The position numbers were made by a program, and so were the translations under genes. A stretch of 34,905 nucleotides of DNA from Chitinophagales bacterium (lineage in GTDB: Bacteria; Bacteroidota; Bacteroidia; Chitinophagales; UBA2359), in NCBI GenBank assembly GCA_020631035.1, contig JAHDIA010000002.1:8684-43588 (forward strand), written 5' to 3'. This document shows positions 4,839 through 34,562 of this stretch, piece after piece. Under the pieces are notes generated by a model. It made no database searches, had not been told where the DNA came from, and saw only the letters and a program-made list of their open reading frames with translations. Position 1 is the stretch's first letter; every line of letters begins with the position of its first letter.

Positions 4839-6104
4839 ATGAACCTACGAAACGGAATCTTATTAATAGCTTTGATTACGGCCGCAATTGGTTTGATTGA
4901 AGTAAACAACCGAGCGAGCGAGCGAGCGGCCAAAATAGAGGAACGCTTCAAAGCTGCCGTAATCGCTGCCGCCCCCACTGGACAACTCGAATACTTTGCT
5001 TTTCCCAATAGCGAGGACTATTCCAATATACCACAAGATCCCAAAAACCCAATCAACAAACCAAAGGTCGAACTCGGTCGAATTATCATTCAATCGAAAT
5101 ATACAGGTATCAAACCAATGAACAACGCTGGTTACGGCTTGTACAATTGTGTGATTTGCCACCACGACGGCCACGGTTTCACCAACCCAACAGATGTTCC
5201 ATTGGGAGACGGCGGCATCATTTTTGGCGATACTGTTGTCCGTAATCCCTACTATACAGAGGACTCACTTTGCGACCTGTCAACCCTCAAGGCTTCGACT
5301 TTTCTTAACATCGCATATTCGGACCTTGTGTTGTGGTCGGGAATGCTAGGATACGAGGGCGCAAATTCGGGCATTGACTTTGACCAATTGGCTCATTTTG
5401 AGCATCCTAAGCAGTTGAACGACCTTGAGTTCAAAGGTCCAGAACTTCAGGCATTCGGGGCGGGTGTAATGGCTCACCGATTTATATTTGATCCTACGGA
5501 CGAGCTGACAAAGGACTCATATATCGGTAAGCTGTTTTATCTTGCTTTTCCCAACGACCCCCACCCTATCAATGACATTAATGCAGGTCTAGCAATTGCC
5601 GCTTTTGAGCGAACCGTATTGGCAAACGAAGCACCTTTCCAAAAATGGCTCGCTGGTGATAAGAATGCCTTATCTGAAACCGATAAGCGAAACGGGCTTC
5701 ATTTCTTCAAATCTTGTGCGACTTCGGGTTGCCACAATTCGCCCGCTTTTGGGAACGATAGCGAATTTCACAATTTCGATTTTCCGAATATGTGGGATTG
5801 TTACGATCTCGTAGAATACGACGAAGCTGCCGCAAATGGTCGCTTTATTGTGACGGGCGACTCGTCCGATATTGGCAAATACAAAGTACCTCAATTGTAT
5901 AATGTAAGTGACCATGAGTGCTGGGGGCATTCGTGTTGTTACGACGATATGGATGCCATTGTACAGGCACACAATTATAACCTAGAATTTTCATATTTGA
6001 AAAAATGTAACAACTTTGTAACAGTCGCTTTACGTGATCCAAACCTCAGCCGTTACACCAAAACACAAGGCGAAAAAACAGACGCTGAACTACTGTTACA
6101 CTAG
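4839..6104 (+). CDS. di-haem cytochrome c peroxidase-like (MauG/CcpA family) protein
   Basis: N-terminal hydrophobic signal/anchor; canonical CxxCH (CVICHH) plus a second, CX4CH motif (CATSGCH) followed by N-S-P-A-F; overall di-haem peroxidase layout. Confidence 0.75.
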   Translation: MNLRNGILLIALITAAIGLIEVNNRASERAAKIEERFKAAVIAAAPTGQLEYFAFPNSEDYSNIPQDPKNPINKPKVELGRIIIQSKYTGIKPMNNAGYGLYNCVICHHDGHGFTNPTDVPLGDGGIIFGDTVVRNPYYTEDSLCDLSTLKASTFLNIAYSDLVLWSGMLGYEGANSGIDFDQLAHFEHPKQLNDLEFKGPELQAFGAGVMAHRFIFDPTDELTKDSYIGKLFYLAFPNDPHPINDINAGLAIAAFERTVLANEAPFQKWLAGDKNALSETDKRNGLHFFKSCATSGCHNSPAFGNDSEFHNFDFPNMWDCYDLVEYDEAAANGRFIVTGDSSDIGKYKVPQLYNVSDHECWGHSCCYDDMDAIVQAHNYNLEFSYLKKCNNFVTVALRDPNLSRYTKTQGEKTDAELLLH

Positions 6105-6190
6105 CTGTTACCACTGCTGTTTTTTTGAGTGTTACTTCTACTGTTACAAGTTGTTACCAAAACCGTTGGTAACGCTTTTGGTAACAGCAA

Positions 6191-6226
6191 AAAACCCCTG
6201 TTATCACTAAGGATAACAGGGGTTTT
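6191..6226. terminator. bidirectional intrinsic terminator between convergent genes
   Basis: AAAACCCCTGTTATC-actaag-GATAACAGGGGTTTT. Confidence 0.85.
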
Positions 6227-6264
6227 GTGTAACAGCAATAGGGGAGTGTTACTCCCGTGTAACA

Positions 6265-6630
6265 CTATGTCGTTTTTGCTGTTTTTGGAAGTGTTTCAAC
6301 TTCGGTGTATGGCTGGTATCTTTTGTTTTCAAATGCCATTTGTAACAGTAATACTACTTGTTCATTATCGTCTATCATTTTCTGACTTGCATCCATTATT
6401 TTCTTGACTTGATCGTCCCATACTTCAACAGCGACATTCTCTACATCAACAGGTAATTCGTCATCTATAGGTCTTAAATATGTTTCTCGAAAATGATATA
6501 ATTTCAAGCTATTTTCTTTGAAAATATTCAGACATTGCTCTACGTGGTCACGCCAAAAATGAGCAGTATTGACGGTTCCGAATTTTTCGTTTGCATTTGT
6601 AACTTGAGGGCTTATATTTATTAATTTCAT
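6265..6630 (-). CDS. hypothetical protein
   Basis: 121-aa ORF downstream of 6662..7375 on the same strand. Confidence 0.5.
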   Translation of the reverse strand: MKLINISPQVTNANEKFGTVNTAHFWRDHVEQCLNIFKENSLKLYHFRETYLRPIDDELPVDVENVAVEVWDDQVKKIMDASQKMIDDNEQVVLLLQMAFENKRYQPYTEVETLPKTAKTT

Positions 6631-6661: not shown

Positions 6662-7375
6662 TTATTTGTTTTTGTTTTTCTTCTTAGTCTTGGTTTTCTT
6701 CTTAGGCTTGCTTTTTGATTTCGCCTTGGTCTTAGGCTTTTCCGAATCTACAGGAGCAGGCTTAACAGATGAATTTGGTGTTACTATATCAATATAGTTT
6801 GTTTGTGCATCTATAGCCCATTGTATGGCCTTGAAAACTTGAATCAAGGTCGCTAATTGACCTATTTGGTATTTTCGGGTATAGTAACACTTATCTGAAA
6901 AATAAATATTCTTTATTTTCCAAAAAAGAAACAAAGCAAAATCCTTACAATAATTTTTCCCATACATATCAATGAGGTTCTCGTGTATACTTTTGTCACA
7001 CAAAAAAGGGGGGTATGTAGGTCCGTTGTATAGACCGAAAGTTGATATGTTAGTGTTCAATATTTCCCCATATCCTAAGTCAAATTTATGTATCAATATC
7101 ATTAGTTGTGATATACACAACAAATAATGATTTTCGGCACATACTTCTAAATGTGGAATATCACGAGAATCATTGTCGAAATGCAACATGTTGATTACAT
7201 TTTGAATGTCGGCAAGATAGTTGTCATTCAAAAATCCTTTGACATTTTTTTTGATCTTATACGTGAGATTAAACGTTTTTTCTCTGTCGAGAATGGAAAT
7301 TCCTAATTCTTTTAGGGATTTGGTGAGAACAGGGGGCGACATTGCCCACTTTTTTAGATCATTTCTTTTGCTCAT
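6662..7375 (-). CDS. hypothetical protein with Lys-rich C-terminal tail, downstream of ncRNA C
   Basis: 237-aa ORF ending ...KPKTKAKSKSKPKKKTKTKKKNKNK; start codon overlaps motif X3 of element C. Confidence 0.6.
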   Translation of the reverse strand: MSKRNDLKKWAMSPPVLTKSLKELGISILDREKTFNLTYKIKKNVKGFLNDNYLADIQNVINMLHFDNDSRDIPHLEVCAENHYLLCISQLMILIHKFDLGYGEILNTNISTFGLYNGPTYPPFLCDKSIHENLIDMYGKNYCKDFALFLFWKIKNIYFSDKCYYTRKYQIGQLATLIQVFKAIQWAIDAQTNYIDIVTPNSSVKPAPVDSEKPKTKAKSKSKPKKKTKTKKKNKNK

Positions 7376-7393
7376 TTTATGAAAGTTGAAGTT

Positions 7394-7590
7394 AAAAAAT
7401 AGCCTAGCATGTAGGCTTAGTTCAGTTTGAGCAAAAGAACTGTGATTTCAACCTTGTACGAAAACAAGGAAAGAACTCAACCTAACACACTAGACCATAT
7501 CTTCAAATCATAAAGATATAATCAAATTCAATATTTAAAGTAAGAAAATTTCGACACAAAGTACGAAATCAACTTATTCTTTTGCTCAAT
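7394..7590 (-). ncRNA. candidate ncRNA C (X/X'/X3 class)
   Basis: Minus-strand TATCTTTG (7592-7599) followed by X1 TTGAGCAAAAGAA (7577-7589); perfect antisense TTCTTTTGCTCAA (7427-7439 on + is TTGAGCAAAAGAA); extra TGATTTC/GAAATCA pairing; terminator AGCCTA-catgc-TAGGCT-ATTTTTT (7394-7417). Confidence 0.65.
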
Positions 7591-7591
7591 A

Positions 7592-7599
7592 CAAAGATA
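7592..7599 (-). promoter_or_regulatory. Bacteroidota-type -7 element TATCTTTG for ncRNA C
   Basis: TAnnTTTG consensus immediately 5' of X1; -33 element weak. Confidence 0.5.
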
Positions 7600-8127: not shown

Positions 8128-8556
8128 TCAATTCTTCAAACTCCTAAGCAATAGTTTATTTTTAGCCTTAGAGCATATAGTTTCATTCAAAGAAAAAAAA
8201 GAAGGGCTTGGACCATCATTGTATTCAACACCATCCCAAATCCCTCGTGAATCTTTATACATGATAAGATAGTCTTGAGGGTCGATATTTTCGTCTATTC
8301 TAATATCATATAACACCGACCACATATCATTTGTAACTGATTTGTAACCACCAAGGTCTTGAATCATTATTATACTACCCTCAATAGAATAAGTATAATT
8401 AGAACGATTAGCAAAAATGTTCAACTGGGCATCATTTTTTGATTTTAAGTTCTTTTGTTTTATACGGCAAACTGGACCGATTCCATGTTCCATTGAAACT
8501 GGGTTACTTAGTCTCTTACCGCAAATAGAACATTGATAATGTTTTAAGTTATTCAT
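8128..8556 (-). CDS. small zinc-ribbon protein (CSICGKRLSNPVSMEHGIGPVC; DUF6011-like)
   Basis: CxxC...GIGPxC motif in the N-terminus of a 142-aa ORF. Confidence 0.6.
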   Translation of the reverse strand: MNNLKHYQCSICGKRLSNPVSMEHGIGPVCRIKQKNLKSKNDAQLNIFANRSNYTYSIEGSIIMIQDLGGYKSVTNDMWSVLYDIRIDENIDPQDYLIMYKDSRGIWDGVEYNDGPSPSFFSLNETICSKAKNKLLLRSLKN

Positions 8557-8677
8557 GAAAAAGTATATTAAAGGTTAAAAAAGCGTCGGATGAGCGGGCG
8601 GTTGCACGCTTGTACGAAGCCCAAAGCATGCGCTGGCTAACCAGTACAAGCGTCGCCACATTTTAAAGGTTTAAAAA

Positions 8678-8863
8678 TTATATATCTAAAGGATCAAATT
8701 CATAAGAAAAAAAATCTCTTAGCTCAGATATAGCCGAATTATTATTCATCATTAGCAAATGAGATATGCATCGAATTACTTTTGATAACAGGTATAGGCA
8801 AATACCAACAATATAAGCGATTAAGTATAGAGGTATTAATAATGTTAATATTTTTTTTTGCAT
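8678..8863 (-). CDS. small membrane protein, copy 1
   Basis: 61 aa, ATG start, hydrophobic segment LTLLIPLYLIAYIVGICLYLL; duplicated at 8975..9160. Confidence 0.5.
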   Translation of the reverse strand: MQKKILTLLIPLYLIAYIVGICLYLLSKVIRCISHLLMMNNNSAISELRDFFSYEFDPLDI

Positions 8864-8974
8864 AAAAAAAGTTTAAAAAGCGTCGGACGAGCGGGCGGTT
8901 GAACGCTTGTACGAAGCCCAAAGCATGCGCTGGCTAACCAGTACAAGCGTCGCCACATTTTAAAGGTTTAAAAA

Positions 8975-9160
8975 TTATATATCTAAAGGATCAAATTCAT
9001 AAGAAAAAAAATCTCTTAGCTCAGATATAGCCGAATTATTATTCATCATTAGCAAATGAGATATGCATCGAATTACTTTTGATAACAGGTATAGGCAAAT
9101 ACCAACAATATAAGCGATTAAGTATAGAGGTATTAATAATGTTAATATTTTTTTTTGCAT
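8975..9160 (-). CDS. small membrane protein, copy 2 (identical)
   Basis: Identical translation to 8678..8863. Confidence 0.5.
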   Translation of the reverse strand: MQKKILTLLIPLYLIAYIVGICLYLLSKVIRCISHLLMMNNNSAISELRDFFSYEFDPLDI

Positions 9161-9279
9161 AAAAAAAGTTTAAAAAGCGTCGGACGAGCGGGCGGTTGAA
9201 CGCTTGTACGAAGCCCAAAGCATGCGCTGGCTAACCAGTACAAGCGTCGCCACTACCCAAAGCCGATGCAAATAAAAAA

Positions 9280-9773: not shown

Positions 9774-9845
9774 TTTAGTAGATTTTGGTGGAAAAATTGG
9801 TTTTTTTAAAAAAATGGTGTCTTATACTTTGAATATGTCGAAAAC

Positions 9846-10064
9846 TACAACTACATAACTACAAATGTAAAAAAAACACTTAAAACGTTGATAATCAATG
9901 ATTATGCTATGTAGTTCTTATGTAGTTGTGTGTAGTTGTAACAACTACGTGTAGTTGCTACAACTACGTTAGAACTACATAAGAACTACATACTATTTAT
10001 GGTTTAAGTTGTTGATAATTAGATGTTTATGTTTTTTTACTAATTTTTGTAGTTGTGTAGTTGT
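9846..10064. other. putative replication origin / iteron region
   Basis: Many copies of (T)GTAGTTGT/ACAACTAC, a 19-bp perfect inverted repeat (9909-9927 / 9973-9991), AT-rich, downstream of the primase gene. Confidence 0.5.
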
Positions 10065-10069
10065 AGTTT

Positions 10070-13000
10070 TTATGGTTTTTTTTGAAACGGTATTTGTTTT
10101 TGTTGGTTTTTGGAATCTTTGATAAATGCTTGGAACCTAGCTGCCAAATCTTCATTCTCGTTTTTAAGCTGTGCAATTATATCTTCATAGTCTGGCTTTT
10201 GTCCGAAATCCTCAATATGAGCTTTTGGAGCTAAGTCGATGCCTCGTTCTTGTAATTTGCCATAGTCGTAAACATATGCCGTCGTGGGTTTTCCTGTACC
10301 GAATCGGGTTTGGTGGTTGGCTGCGAGAAATGCTTCGTCATTTTTGAGGTAATGGCGTAAAGACTTGTCATCTAAGGCACCCGCTCCGAACATTGATTTG
10401 TATCTTGGTCCGTATTGAGGAAATATATTGGTGAATTTGAATTTTAGTAAGGTCTTTGCTTCGCCCTCCCAATCAGCCTCGACAATCTTATAATCGTATG
10501 GTGTTTCTAATGTATTGTTTTTGTCTTTGACTGCTGATTCAAAACATAACCAGAAGCGACCAAGATCAATGGAGCCTCCAAAGTCCTTTTGTTGTAAGCT
10601 CAGTATTTCTATTGTGAACTTTTGTAGTTTTTCATATGTAAAAGGAAATGCTAGATAAGGCGATAATACATTGTACATTGACAATAACATACACAGATAA
10701 TCGGATGTACGGGATTTTAGTATCCCGTCCTCTACGAGTTTGATGTGTTTTTCCTGTTCTTTTCTGAACTCTTTACGGAACAATTGTTGGACTGCTGGAC
10801 GATATTTGAGCACCTGAGCGAGTAAGTGGACAATTCCATCGGTTTCGTAGTCTCTCATTTTGTTGAATGCGCTTTTATTAAATTCCCGTTTGTTAAATCG
10901 CAATATGATAAACCTTGTATAAAGGTCCTCGTGTATTGTTGGAAGCTGTGTTCCACAAACCAACACCTGAGAACGCATCGGAAATACGACGGTACGGTTG
11001 TTGTTTGAATAGGCTTTATTTCTGTTTGGGTTTCGGTTGTAAGTTGCTCGTAATAGTCCTGTGTGTCGTTTTTGCTCGGCTGTAATGTTTTTATATTCGT
11101 CAAGCAATAGCGTAGCGTCGCAAAACTTGGACATTGTGGCATTTATTCCCTTTGGTGTAGAATCACCACATAAATCAATGGGGAATTGACGTTCCCCAAA
11201 CCAGGATAACATTGATTTAGCCATTTGGGTTTTACCCGTTTCAGGTTGTCCATAACTGAACAGCATCGGCATTGACTCATTTAGCGATTTGAATACCTCC
11301 GTTGAGTGAACCAAACACATAAGATACATGAGTCCTATCATTCCATTATTTTGATAATTGGTAAGGAACAGCTGAGTATATTCCTCAAAACTAACATCGG
11401 TCGATATGTATCTGAATTTACGTTCATCAACGACCATGTTTTTATCCACGGATTTACTGAAATATGGTAAGTATAGATAGGTTTTGTTTTGAATCTTGAC
11501 GATGTTTTTTTGTTCGTCTACTGGGTGAAAAACACCATCTTTGATAATACCGTTTGACATTATATACGCCTGGTGTTCTTCGTTCCATCCAAGGAAATTG
11601 GGTTCGATGCAAAATTTTTCTTTCTCGAAAAGTTTTGCCTTTATTTTGCCGAGGTCTGAGTCGGACCCCATAAAACGAAAATTCCCCATTCCCTCTAATA
11701 CTCTTTTGAACTTTGACAAGTTGATCATGTCCTCGATAGCGAACTCGACTTGTTTGCGGACACCTGCATCGTTGACAATTTCCATTACTCTTTTTTGATC
11801 CTGTATAAACATATCGGGTATAAGAATAAAATTTGATTTTGCCGAACCTGAGTAAGTTGCTGAAGACGTAAAAAAGTATTTGTTTGCTTCCTCATAGAAA
11901 CCATAGTTCTCTATATCGAACCTTTGTTGGTCGGTTCGCTTTATTTTCCCCGTTCGTTCGGCTTCGAGTTTTTCGTCGATTATTTTTTTTACGGCTTTTG
12001 TAAGGTCTGCTTTGTTGAACTTGAATTCTGTACAAATCTCTTTTGTTAACTTCTGTCGAATATTTTCGGCTTCAATACTCGATAGCAATAGGGCAACATA
12101 AGACTCTAATTGTAATAGTGCAAAAGTGTCTTTGTCTTCTGGATAGGCTTCAGATACCAGGTAATTGATTCCTAGTTGGGAGCTGTTCAACACTTCTAAC
12201 ATTGCCAATTGTTCCCGTAATTGATTCCTAGATTCAATGAAGTTTATAAACTGCTTTTGTTTCCATTGACTGTACTTTGGATAAGTTGATTTCGTATATA
12301 ATAAATCAGCGGGGTCTTTGCCCTCAGCTATGATACATATTTGTACATTCAATTGGTTACGGATACCAATTTCGATGGCTTTTTTGGCTGCTTTGCGTCC
12401 CGCTTCGTCGCCATCAAAAATAAACACCACATTGGGCGTATATCGGGCAATGATTTGGGCGTGTTGCTCGGTAAAGGCGGTACCACAAGTGGCAATCGTG
12501 TTGATCCAACTTTCTTGGTACATAAGGTCGGCATCTGTATAGCCCTCGACGACATATACTTTGTTATGTTTTTTGATGGCTTTCTTTGCTCGATGTAGCC
12601 CATACAAAGTCCTCTTTTTCTCAAATATTTCGGAATCAGTGCTATTGATGTATTTGGGGTTTTCCCTTGTGGTTTTATCCAACGTTCTTGCACCAAATGC
12701 AACTATGTCACCTTTGGTATTGTGTATTGGGAATGTAATACGGTTTGACCAAATGTCGTCTTTGTTTTTCCCTTCCCAATATCCGATCCCTAGTTCGGCA
12801 ATTGTTGCGGGTGTATAGCCTCGTTTGCTGAGGTACTCCAGCGCATCGGGGCGGCTCGCCATTGCGGCGAGTGCCTTTTGTTGCGAATCTTGTATTTTCT
12901 GTTTGAGCTTGCTGGTTCGGTCTTCTTTCTCTATTCGTTGCTGTTTGGTGGTATCGTCTTCATCTTCGTACTTAATGGTAATGTTGAAGTGTTCAGCAAT

Positions 13001-17091: not shown

Positions 17092-17125
17092 AAAAAATCC
17101 CTCGGTTTTGCCGAGGGATTTTTTT
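17091..17125. terminator. bidirectional terminator overlapping the CRISPR distal repeat
   Basis: AAAAAAATCCCTCGG-ttttg-CCGAGGGATTTTTTT. Confidence 0.9.
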
Positions 17126-17413
17126 TATTCCAGTTTGGTACGATTAAAACTAGGTACAAAATTTACTACTCTATAACAATGTACTTTATTTCAATTCCAG
17201 TTTGGTACGATTAAAACATTTGATTTTGATTTTAACAACCCAGTGGGCAACTTATTTCAATTCCAGTTTGGTACGATTAAAACGGGCGGTTTTTAGGGCT
17301 TAGACAGTTAGTAAACATATTTCAATTCCAGTTTGGTACGATTAAAACTTAGAATTGACAAAGGGGGCAAAGATGGGTATACAATTTCAATTCCAGTTTG
17401 GTGCGATTAAAAC
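17121..17413 (-). CRISPR. orphan CRISPR mini-array: 5 repeats, 4 spacers
   Basis: 30-nt repeat GTTTTAATCGTACCAAACTGGAATTGAAAT (minus strand) at 17384-17413 (one variant base), 17319-17348, 17254-17283, 17188-17217 and degenerate 17121-17150; spacers of 35, 35, 36 and 37 nt; ATTGAAAT 3' handle. Confidence 0.92.
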
Positions 17414-17530: not shown

Positions 17531-17658
17531 AGCGTTCCGTCCAAATTTTTATAATTTTGTGGCTGGGCATTTTCTCCTTTCCTTTTATGGAATTCAATCG
17601 GTTGACGTTGGTTGTAGGGGAATTTGCCCCGTTTTTTTGTTGGTTGATTGCGGTTTGT

Positions 17659-17666
17659 TATATTTG
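17659..17666 (+). promoter_or_regulatory. promoter of ncRNA A (-7 TATATTTG, -33 TTTG at 17636-17639, 19-nt spacing)
   Basis: Matches the Bacteroidota TTTG-N19-TAnnTTTG pattern. Confidence 0.65.
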
Positions 17667-17670
17667 TATT

Positions 17671-17841
17671 AACAATCGCTGACAATTGATTGTAAACCGT
17701 TAATGGATCGGCTAAATTCCATTGAATACATATTTTTGTAAGTATAAGATTTGGGGCATTTTCTCCTTTTCTCACTTTGGTTATGCCATTAGTGGGATAC
17801 AACTGTTGTCAGCGATTGTAGGGGAATTTGCCCCGTTTTTT
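17671..17841 (+). ncRNA. candidate ncRNA A (X/X'/X3 class), upstream of HNH A
   Basis: X1 ACAATCGCTGACAA 17672-17685; X' TTGTCAGCGATTGT 17806-17819; terminator GGGGAATTTGCCCC+T-run 17821-17841; X3 CAATCGCTGACA 17863-17874 just before ATG 17876; highly similar to ncRNA B. Confidence 0.75.
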
Positions 17842-17875
17842 ATTTTATTTACTCACTTAAATCAATCGCTGACAC

Positions 17876-18244
17876 ATGAACGATTTAAACTACCGAGTTG
17901 ATCCCAGTATCTCGCAAGAGGTCAACCAATTGCAATTTTTTACGCTTGCTTATTTACAAGTTTCCTCGAAAATGTCTCGCAAAAAATGCGTTTACTGTGA
18001 GATACGTACAACTGAAGCGAATCGAACAGTTGACCATTTAATCCCGAAATGTCGGCTCACTTTGTTGAGTGAGCGACTCGTGACCGTGATAGGTCCATTG
18101 AACAAATATTGTTGTTGTCGAGCTTGTAATACTCTCAAGGGCGACATGAGCTTGAGGGAATTTTACGAGCTGGTAAAAGCGTCGAATTTGGAGCGTAAAA
18201 AGGCAATCTTACGCAACATTGGGAAATTGATCTATTTGGATTAG
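17876..18244 (+). CDS. small HNH endonuclease-like protein A
   Basis: KKCVYCEIRTTEANRTVDHLIPKCR...NKYCCCRACNTLKGDMS: CxxC, DHLIP, CxxCNxxKG signature; paralogue of the ORF ending at 33687. Confidence 0.85.
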   Translation: MNDLNYRVDPSISQEVNQLQFFTLAYLQVSSKMSRKKCVYCEIRTTEANRTVDHLIPKCRLTLLSERLVTVIGPLNKYCCCRACNTLKGDMSLREFYELVKASNLERKKAILRNIGKLIYLD

Positions 18245-33686: not shown

Positions 33687-34349
33687 TCAGTCCACTTTTA
33701 TGATACGGCGTAGGTTGTGGAGTATTTTGTCCTTACGCTCCAAGGTGGATGCTTTTATAAGCTTGTAGAATTGTAACAAACTAAGATCGCCTTTTAGGGC
33801 GTTGCATTCTCTACAACACCAATACTTATTCAGTGGAGCTATAATATTTATAAAGGCGTCGTTTAATTGCTTCAATCTACAACGAGGGACGAGGTGATCT
33901 TTGGTTCTGTTTTGCTCCGTTGTACGTATCTCACAATACACACATTTTTTACGAGTCATTTTACTACTTTTTTGTAAGTAGGTCAATGTCCAAAGATTTA
34001 GTAAACTGATTTCTTCCGAGATGGCGGGGTCAACTCTATAGTTGTTAATGTTGCCGTGTCCCGTTGCTGGGGCCGTGGAATGGGCTTGAGTTCTCATAAC
34101 TGTTGCTTTTGTAGGGTTAAGTAAACTTAAAGGCCCAGTCGCCAAACTTTGCCATTCCACGGGCTTTATAAGTTTAAACGAACTGGGCACAGTTGTTCCG
34201 TTATCGAAATATTTGTTCGATGCCCGTGGAATGTACGACCAAATATATTGCATATATGGACCATATGCCAATATGATTTGTAAACGCACCCAAAACGAGC
34301 ATAAACGGTTGATTTGGCTTTGTAAGCCGCTTTTTTGAAAATCTTTCAT
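33687..34349 (-). CDS. HNH endonuclease-like protein B with ~100-residue N-terminal extension of uncertain coding status
   Basis: NYRVDPAISEEIS...KKCVYCEIRTTEQNRTKDHLVPRCR...CCRECNALKGDLS, clear paralogue of HNH A; homology starts near 34052, so true start may be internal (e.g. MRTQAH). Confidence 0.8.
   Translation of the reverse strand: MKDFQKSGLQSQINRLCSFWVRLQIILAYGPYMQYIWSYIPRASNKYFDNGTTVPSSFKLIKPVEWQSLATGPLSLLNPTKATVMRTQAHSTAPATGHGNINNYRVDPAISEEISLLNLWTLTYLQKSSKMTRKKCVYCEIRTTEQNRTKDHLVPRCRLKQLNDAFINIIAPLNKYWCCRECNALKGDLSLLQFYKLIKASTLERKDKILHNLRRIIKVD
34073..34247 (-). ncRNA. candidate ncRNA unit B2 (X-X'-X arrangement) within the 5' part of ORF B
   Basis: Minus-strand TATATTTG (34240-34247), 6 nt, X1 CATTCCACGGGC (34222-34233), X' GCCCGTGGAATG (34153-34164), X3 CATTCCACGG (34073-34082). 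Confidence 0.45.
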
Positions 34350-34376
34350 TCTCGGTGATTGATTTTAGTGAGTAAA

Positions 34377-34550
34377 TAAAAAACGGGGCAAAGTCCCCTA
34401 CAATCACCGAGAAATGTTGTAGTCCACCAATGGCAATGCCAAAAGGTAGATAAAGGAGAAATTGCCCCAAATCTTAGTTTTGAGTATCAGTATACACAAT
34501 GGAATATAGCCGTTCCATTAGCGGTTTACAATCGTTTCTCGGTGATTGTT
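34377..34550 (-). ncRNA. candidate ncRNA B (X/X'/X3 class), upstream of HNH B
   Basis: X1 ACAATCACCGAGAAA (34535-34549), X' TTTCTCGGTGATTGT (34400-34414), terminator GGGGACTTTGCCCC+T-run (34378-34398), X3 CAATCACCGAGAA (34349-34361) overlapping ATG at 34349. Confidence 0.75.
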
Positions 34551-34554
34551 AATA

Positions 34555-34562
34555 CAAATATA
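34555..34562 (-). promoter_or_regulatory. promoter of ncRNA B (-7 TATATTTG; -33 TTTG 34582-34585, 19-nt spacing)
   Basis: Same consensus and spacing as promoter A. Confidence 0.65.

What the first reader, a model, noticed from the sequence alone, without database searches (positions are those of the whole stretch)
6662..7590. System-level hypothesis: self-mimicking antisense RNA guarding a downstream effector
Inference from A, B and C: each RNA carries an antisense seed (X') to the start site of the adjacent gene plus a built-in decoy (X1) that can sequester the seed. Because X3 is encoded after the terminator, X'-X3 pairing must occur in trans or in read-through RNA. Plausible roles are type-I-like toxin-antitoxin control, superinfection immunity between related elements sharing X, or a translational timer. 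The C effector has a strongly basic tail and the A/B effectors are HNH nucleases, all potentially nucleic-acid acting and toxic.
Basis: inference. Interest (0 to 1): 0.8.

Follow-up and report, generated by a model that had tools for sequence, protein, structure and literature searches.

The report
Phage RNA leaders guarding cargo genes
Three cargo genes of an uncultured bacterium's prophage each sit behind their own small structured RNA that is complementary to the gene's own start site, an arrangement resembling the RNA silencers of phages P1 and P4 but with two extra built-in switches, so it looks like a new variant of a known kind of RNA control.

Summary
Only three places in the window carry a triplet of 11 nt or more (X1, inverted X', X3): A (17.67-18.24 kb), B (34.56-33.69 kb) and C (7.60-6.66 kb). 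Each has the promoter-like motif TAnnTTTGTATT, found nowhere else in the window, just before X1; X' complementary to X1 and to the start region of the next gene; and a terminator-like hairpin between X' and X3. A and B are homologous RNAs with compensatory changes and no broken pairs.

I add a second self-complementarity: an internal loop (K1) is complementary to the terminator itself (K2), p 0.002 or less in each of five RNAs. Two HNH genes in a sister genome have the same X1:X' and K1:K2 plan. In one, X1 and X3 pair with different, overlapping parts of X', which argues for antisense pairing rather than a duplicated site.

Best explanation: a self-contained leader/sRNA that keeps a cargo gene off by attenuation plus start-codon antisense. 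It works like P4 CI and P1/P7 C4 RNA, but membership fails or is untestable. Toxin-antitoxin function is unsupported. A and B are HNH proteins; C is an orphan. Nothing is shown experimentally.

The parts
7592..7599 (-). C: promoter-like motif TATCTTTG (extended TAnnTTTGTATT) directly before X1
   Evidence: TAnnTTTGTATT occurs only 3 times in the window, at A, B and C
7576..7589 (-). C: X1, decoy copy of the target at the RNA 5' end
7473..7503 (-). C: K1, complementary to the whole terminator including its T-run
   Evidence: p 0.001 against shuffles
7427..7440 (-). C: X', antisense to X1 and to the gene start
7394..7423 (-). C: K2, contains the terminator hairpin (7401-7417) and T-run
7360..7374 (-). 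C: X3, target overlapping the start codon
6662..7375 (-). C: 237-aa orphan ORF with basic C-terminal tail
17659..17666 (+). A: promoter-like motif TATATTTG
17672..17686 (+). A: X1
17690..17706 (+). A: 5' strand of the middle stem of the rod
17744..17767 (+). A: K1
17786..17802 (+). A: 3' strand of the middle stem
17805..17819 (+). A: X'
17820..17843 (+). A: K2, weak terminator-like hairpin (4 G-C pairs) and T6
   Evidence: not listed by the scan, which needs 5 pairs
17863..17874 (+). A: X3, ends one base before the ATG
17876..18244 (+). A: 122-aa HNH endonuclease-like ORF
34555..34562 (-). B: promoter-like motif TATATTTG
34535..34549 (-). B: X1
34454..34476 (-). B: K1
   Evidence: p 0.002
34400..34414 (-). 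B: X'
34377..34399 (-). B: K2, weak terminator-like hairpin and T6
34349..34361 (-). B: X3, ends on the A of the ATG
33687..34349 (-). B: 220-aa HNH endonuclease-like ORF

Best explanation
Each locus is a self-contained phage cargo cassette. A promoter drives a structured leader RNA of about 170-200 nt, most of which is expected to end at the hairpin K2; the effector mRNA is the read-through product. X' is antisense to the initiation region (X3) of the effector. X1, the 5' end of the same RNA, is a copy of the target that can hold X' in an intramolecular stem. A further segment, K1, can pair with the terminator K2. Two switches are thus coupled on the adjacent strands X'-K2. With X1:X' and K1:K2 formed, the terminator is undone and the start codon is free, so the gene can be made. 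With the K2 hairpin formed and X' paired to X3, the gene is off at the levels of transcription and translation. I infer that the default is off, that an RNA with X' freed (by processing or loss of X1) silences read-through mRNA from the same or a matching incoming element, and that the purpose is tight control of a costly cargo gene with self-specificity. Shown by computation: the complementarities, their significance, covariation and in-silico competition. Inferred: RNA production, termination, processing, trans action, sign and purpose.
For: Three and only three triplets of 11 nt or more, each right behind the only TAnnTTTGTATT motifs of the window. X':X3 always touches the start codon region. 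A versus B: 46 consensus pairs, 0 broken, 5 changed on both sides; three core substitutions of X recur at all three sites. X':X3 is self-specific: -16 to -20 kcal/mol with self, -12.4 or weaker across elements. K1:K2 p 0.002 or less in five RNAs, and far stronger than the K2 hairpin. Sister-genome locus L013 keeps X1:X', X':X3 and K1:K2 with unrelated letters, and there X1 and X3 are not copies of each other. Without X1, X' moves to X3 in the predicted read-through RNA. Precedents: P4 CI RNA, C4 RNA, RNA-sequestered homing endonuclease starts.
Against: No expression data. In the predicted full-length RNA X1:X' dominates and X3 is not held by X', so repression needs X1 to be lost or engaged; no trigger is known. 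The A/B terminators are weak. L010 has X1:X' and K1:K2 but no clear X3 and no terminator. K1:K2 in the presence of X1:X' is a pseudoknot whose three-dimensional feasibility is untested. Only four independent RNAs are known, all from phages of one genus.
Confidence: 0.5

Rival explanations
1. Cis-only attenuator: the leader is a switch on its own mRNA, set by a bound protein or ligand (pseudoknot X1:X' + K1:K2 = on; K2 hairpin and X':X3 = off), and the short RNA is just a by-product.
For: K1:K2 is much stronger than the K2 hairpin, the hallmark of terminator/antiterminator pairs; X1 and X' are on the same RNA; L010 keeps K1:K2 but not X3.
Against: Complementarity of K1 reaches the T-run in A, B and C, more than antitermination needs; element-specific diversification of X is more expected of trans-acting specificity; no conserved ligand pocket could be assessed with so few sequences.
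Confidence: 0.22
2. IsrK-like activation: read-through mRNA is inactive, and the short RNA acts in trans, its X1 (a mimic of X3) or K1 displacing X' or K2 of the mRNA and turning translation on.
For: IsrK has the same order of promoter, sRNA, terminator, gene, and acts this way on its own mRNA (PMC4825925). X1 is a mimic of X3.
Against: In the predicted read-through RNA X3 is not held by X' (P 0.09 or less), so there is little for a trans RNA to free.
Confidence: 0.13
3. Toxin-antitoxin module: the effector is a toxin and the RNA its antitoxin, either by base pairing (type I-like) or by binding the protein (type III-like, as the order promoter - RNA - terminator - toxin resembles ToxIN).
For: Gene order; A and B are predicted nucleases; C has a basic tail.
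Against: A and B belong to common phage HNH proteins, not toxin families; 122-237 aa soluble proteins rather than small hydrophobic peptides; the antisense is not on the opposite strand; no tandem-repeat antitoxin RNA; C has no match to defence or toxin models.
Confidence: 0.08
4. X is a DNA site rather than an RNA element: an operator or homing site bound by the effector, as I-TevI autorepresses through a homing-site-like operator, or a target-site duplication.
For: X1 lies at the presumed transcription start; I-TevI precedent (PMC2988022); X1 and X3 are direct repeats in A, B and C.
Against: In L013 X1 and X3 are not copies of each other but each is complementary to X'. Compensatory changes fit a helix. 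K1:K2 is unexplained, and C has an unrelated effector.
Confidence: 0.04

Closest known systems
Satellite phage P4 CI immunity RNA (seqA - CI - seqC)
   Same: An antisense segment in a leader RNA is complementary to one site upstream and one downstream on the same transcript, upstream of the genes it controls (PMC4825925)
   Different: P4 CI acts by premature transcription termination on replication genes and is cut from the primary transcript; here an own promoter motif, an intrinsic-terminator-like hairpin, a start-codon target, a terminator complement (K1) and HNH or orphan cargo genes
Phage P1/P7 C4 antisense RNA
   Same: Leader-encoded antisense to the translation start of a downstream gene in the same operon; a few base changes set specificity (PMC5320573, PMC12197685)
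   Different: C4 is about 77 nt, three stem-loops with loops a' and b', cut by RNase P, controls an antirepressor; here a rod of about 170-200 nt, no Rfam C4 match, K1:K2, different cargo
Gifsy-1 IsrK
   Same: Promoter, short RNA, terminator and read-through mRNA that pairs with its own short RNA in a prophage (PMC4825925)
   Different: IsrK pairs with the coding part of orf45 and activates in trans; here X' targets the start region and a decoy X1 lies in the same RNA
RNA-hairpin-controlled phage homing endonucleases (I-TevI, Aeh1 mobE)
   Same: Phage nuclease genes whose start is sequestered in RNA and whose transcripts may be attenuated (PMC2988022)
   Different: There a local hairpin or promoter choice; no separate sRNA, decoy or terminator complement

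Membership tests
P4 CI-type immunity RNA | Antisense complementary to one upstream and one downstream site of the same leader | tested here: met
   X' with X1 and X3 in A, B, C and L013
P4 CI-type immunity RNA | Released by processing; triggers premature termination; confers immunity | not testable with these tools
   No expression data
P4 CI-type immunity RNA | Controls phage replication genes | tested here: not met
   Next genes are HNH proteins or an orphan
C4 antisense RNA (P1/P7) | Match to the C4 covariance model | tested here: not met
   No Rfam match at gathering or relaxed thresholds (the relaxed scan covered A, C, L064 and L065)
C4 antisense RNA (P1/P7) | Antisense to the translation start of a downstream gene on the same operon | tested here: met
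   X3 abuts or overlaps the ATG in A, B, C, L013; not clear in L010
C4 antisense RNA (P1/P7) | RNase P processing | not testable with these tools
   No RNA data
IsrK-type dual sRNA/mRNA | Terminator between sRNA and gene with read-through mRNA | tested here: inconclusive
   Terminator-like hairpins in A, B, C, L013, weak in A/B, none in L010; read-through not measurable
Type I toxin-antitoxin | Small hydrophobic toxin with antisense RNA from the opposite strand or a nearby gene | tested here: not met
   Effectors are 122-237 aa, HNH or basic; the RNA is on the same strand
Type III toxin-antitoxin | Tandem-repeat RNA antitoxin upstream of a ToxN/CptN/TenpN-like nuclease | tested here: not met
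   No tandem repeats within the leaders; no such toxin family
Free-standing phage HNH endonuclease (A, B) | HNH/zinc fold with conserved DH...N...CxxCN residues | tested here: met
   Invariant C38, C41, D53, H54, N76, C81, C84, N85 in four proteins; HNH structural matches
Free-standing phage HNH endonuclease (A, B) | Cuts DNA, homing or packaging role | not testable with these tools
   A lies beside the terminase gene but on the opposite strand
HEARO / OMEGA RNA-guided nuclease | IscB/IsrB-type protein with RuvC plus omega RNA | tested here: not met
   122-aa HNH only, no Rfam match

The most novel reading that the evidence does not exclude
A modular class of phage leader RNA that couples a transcriptional switch (K1 against its own terminator) to a translational switch (X' between decoy X1 and start site X3) on adjacent strands, is attached to unrelated cargo genes, diversifies its word X to give mutually blind specificities within one prophage, and silences incoming copies of the same cassette.
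Probability: 0.25. Interest if true: 0.75.

Novelty: new variant of a known kind. Interest (0 to 1): 0.55.

Why it matters
RNA-only immunity and silencing modules are best known from P1, P4 and Gifsy-type elements of enterobacteria. The same logic in a Bacteroidota prophage, in three cassettes with two unrelated effector types and with coupled terminator and start-codon switches, would show that it is a portable, evolvable control unit. It could also yield compact, mutually orthogonal RNA regulators for Bacteroidota. Concrete compensatory-mutant tests are already defined by the natural A/B sequence differences.

Tried and rejected
Rfam at gathering and relaxed thresholds: nothing credible. AlphaFold of the C protein from a single sequence: pLDDT 36, not used for a fold search. 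Relatives of C: no viral, phage or plasmid match, and only weak hits (E 0.002-0.006) in sampled genomes of the phylum. DNA pattern of the A/B RNA core in viral contigs: none. Primase and integrase relatives in viral contigs: none. Generic scans for X1:X' plus K1:K2 over whole loci are not specific, since shuffles reach similar sums; I therefore tested K1:K2 conditionally at the known loci. L017 (Chloroflexi) and L029 scored in that scan but are a perfect palindrome and a repeat, respectively. The other HNH relatives whose upstream DNA I read (L002, L003, L011, L017, L018, L022, L023, L034) do not show the plan. Papers linking an HNH gene to an upstream pseudoknotted RNA: none relevant. No covariance model was built: A and B are too alike, and the others too different, for a meaningful one.

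Full report
What is there. The window is most of contig C268 (43.6 kb) of a 6-Mb genome. A congeneric genome, G002, has contigs whose lengths and loci match CALBCY010000367.1 and CALBCY010000370.1, an uncultured Chitinophagales MAG. Integrase, primase and terminase genes mark a temperate phage. Three genes, A (HNH, 17876-18244, +), B (HNH, 34349-33687, -) and C (orphan, 7375-6662, -), are each preceded by a non-coding stretch of about 200 nt.

Observation. In each stretch a word X occurs at the 5' end (X1), as its reverse complement 134-149 nt later (X'), and again 52-65 nt further on at the ORF start (X3). These are the only three such triplets of 11 nt or more in the window, and shuffles give none. 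Allowing one mismatch, each word occurs nowhere else in the window, apart from one partial match of the C word. The Bacteroidota -7 promoter motif TAnnTTTG (from my own knowledge), extended to TAnnTTTGTATT, occurs three times in 34.9 kb, each just upstream of X1. The RNAs from X1 to the terminator fold as long rods at z -5.7, -7.5 and -6.6.

RNA-level selection. A and B are 76% identical in the aligned leader (161 of 212 columns). Their consensus fold has 46 pairs, none broken, 5 changed on both sides and 5 on one side. Three core substitutions of X (CAATCGCTGACA in A, CAATCACCGAGA in B) recur at all three sites, so X1:X' and X':X3 are both kept. X':X3 pairing is strong with self (-16 to -20 kcal/mol) and weaker across elements (-12.4 for B on A, -5.7 for A on B, otherwise above -4).

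A second pairing. A segment K1 in the loop of the rod is complementary to the strand that directly follows X', namely the terminator-like hairpin K2; in A, B and C the pairing reaches into the T-run. Against 1000 dinucleotide shuffles of the interior, p is 0.001 (A), 0.002 (B) and 0.001 (C), and 0.001 for each of two relatives. In C two blocks of 19 and 12 nt cover the whole terminator. K1:K2 duplexes (-18 to -30 kcal/mol) far exceed the K2 hairpin (-6 to -7; none in L010). K1:K2 together with X1:X' would make a pseudoknot that undoes the terminator, a candidate antiterminator. It could equally seal the 3' end of the released RNA.

Relatives. Two HNH relatives in G002 (L010 and L013; full contigs L064 and L065) have the same plan upstream. 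In L013, X' pairs X1 through GTTGGACC and X3 through GGACCGAAAAG. X1 and X3 are thus not copies of each other, which argues against a duplicated target site or DNA operator and for antisense pairing at the start codon. L010 has X1:X' and K1:K2 but neither a clear X3 nor a terminator, so that locus may be degenerate or use only one switch. The other HNH relatives checked do not carry the leader. The leader is therefore known so far only from phages of this genus, with one unrelated effector (C) sharing the plan without evident sequence similarity.

Effectors. A and B belong to the small zinc HNH / endonuclease VII-like proteins of phages; the Pfam matches are below the curated cut-offs, but PHROGs, PDB and structure agree. 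A lies beside the terminase, where HNH genes are common (PMC5304195), but on the opposite strand with its own promoter motif. C is all-helical in a low-confidence model and has no known family.

Mechanism. In the predicted full-length RNA X1 holds X' (P 0.75-0.98 in A, B, C and L013) and X3 is not held by X'; without X1, X' moves to X3 (P 0.42-0.85). So the leader contains both an antisense to its own gene and the antidote. The simplest reading is a default-off cassette: most transcripts stop at K2, and read-through mRNA can be blocked at the start codon by X' of an RNA in which X1 is missing or engaged. P4 frees its antisense CI RNA by processing of the leader, and P1/P7 C4 RNA is cut out by RNase P (PMC4825925, PMC5320573). 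A cis-only attenuator and the opposite sign, activation in trans as in IsrK, remain open. I give 0.5, 0.22 and 0.13 respectively. Which RNA isoforms exist, whether termination is efficient and what triggers the switch cannot be settled from sequence.

Comparison with known systems. It works like P4 CI (seqA, antisense, seqC) and like C4 (antisense to a downstream translation start, with specificity set by a few bases). It is not a member of Rfam C4, and the processing step that defines both was not testable. Type I and type III toxin-antitoxin membership fails on structural features. I call it a new variant of a known kind.

Noticed in passing
window 17116-17413: Five-repeat CRISPR-like array (GTTTTAATCGTACCAAACTGGAATTGAAAT, about 35-nt spacers, minus strand) inside the prophage, just upstream of cassette A; this repeat occurs nowhere else in the held genome. 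Could be a phage-borne mini-array; spacers not searched.
   Followed up: partly
window 17552-17638: Truncated 3' copy of the A leader with its own TAATTTTG motif, keeping K1-like and K2 sequences that fold into one hairpin (-26.5 kcal/mol); possibly a remnant or a decoy RNA.
   Followed up: partly
window 8565-9253: Two tandem 297-bp units (98% identical), each a 95-nt hairpin-rich element plus a 61-aa ORF; a third copy of the element (94%) precedes the DUF6011 ORF at 8128-8556. Looks like a repeated cassette with its own leader.
   Followed up: no
window 9841-10070: Nested inverted repeats (36 nt at 83%, 20 nt perfect) rich in GTAGTTGT between the primase gene and the next ORF; candidate replication origin or leader.
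   Followed up: no
window 34040-34340: The B HNH ORF has about 100 extra N-terminal residues relative to A, in a stretch with direct and inverted copies of CCGTGGAATG, further copies of which lie after its stop codon; possible in-frame insertion.
   Followed up: no
window 6100-6270: Dense TGTTAC/GTAACA repeats and a strong terminator-like inverted repeat (6188-6229) just downstream of the ORF at 4839-6104.
   Followed up: no
window 4839-6104: 421-aa ORF with two haem-binding-like motifs (CVICH, CATSGCH), reminiscent of di-haem cytochrome c peroxidases, unusual for a prophage; may be host or cargo.
   Followed up: no
L017:1541-1706 (Chloroflexi MAG JAJRVO010000631.1): A perfect long palindrome with further complementarity upstream of an unrelated HNH gene; different from the leaders here.
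   Followed up: partly
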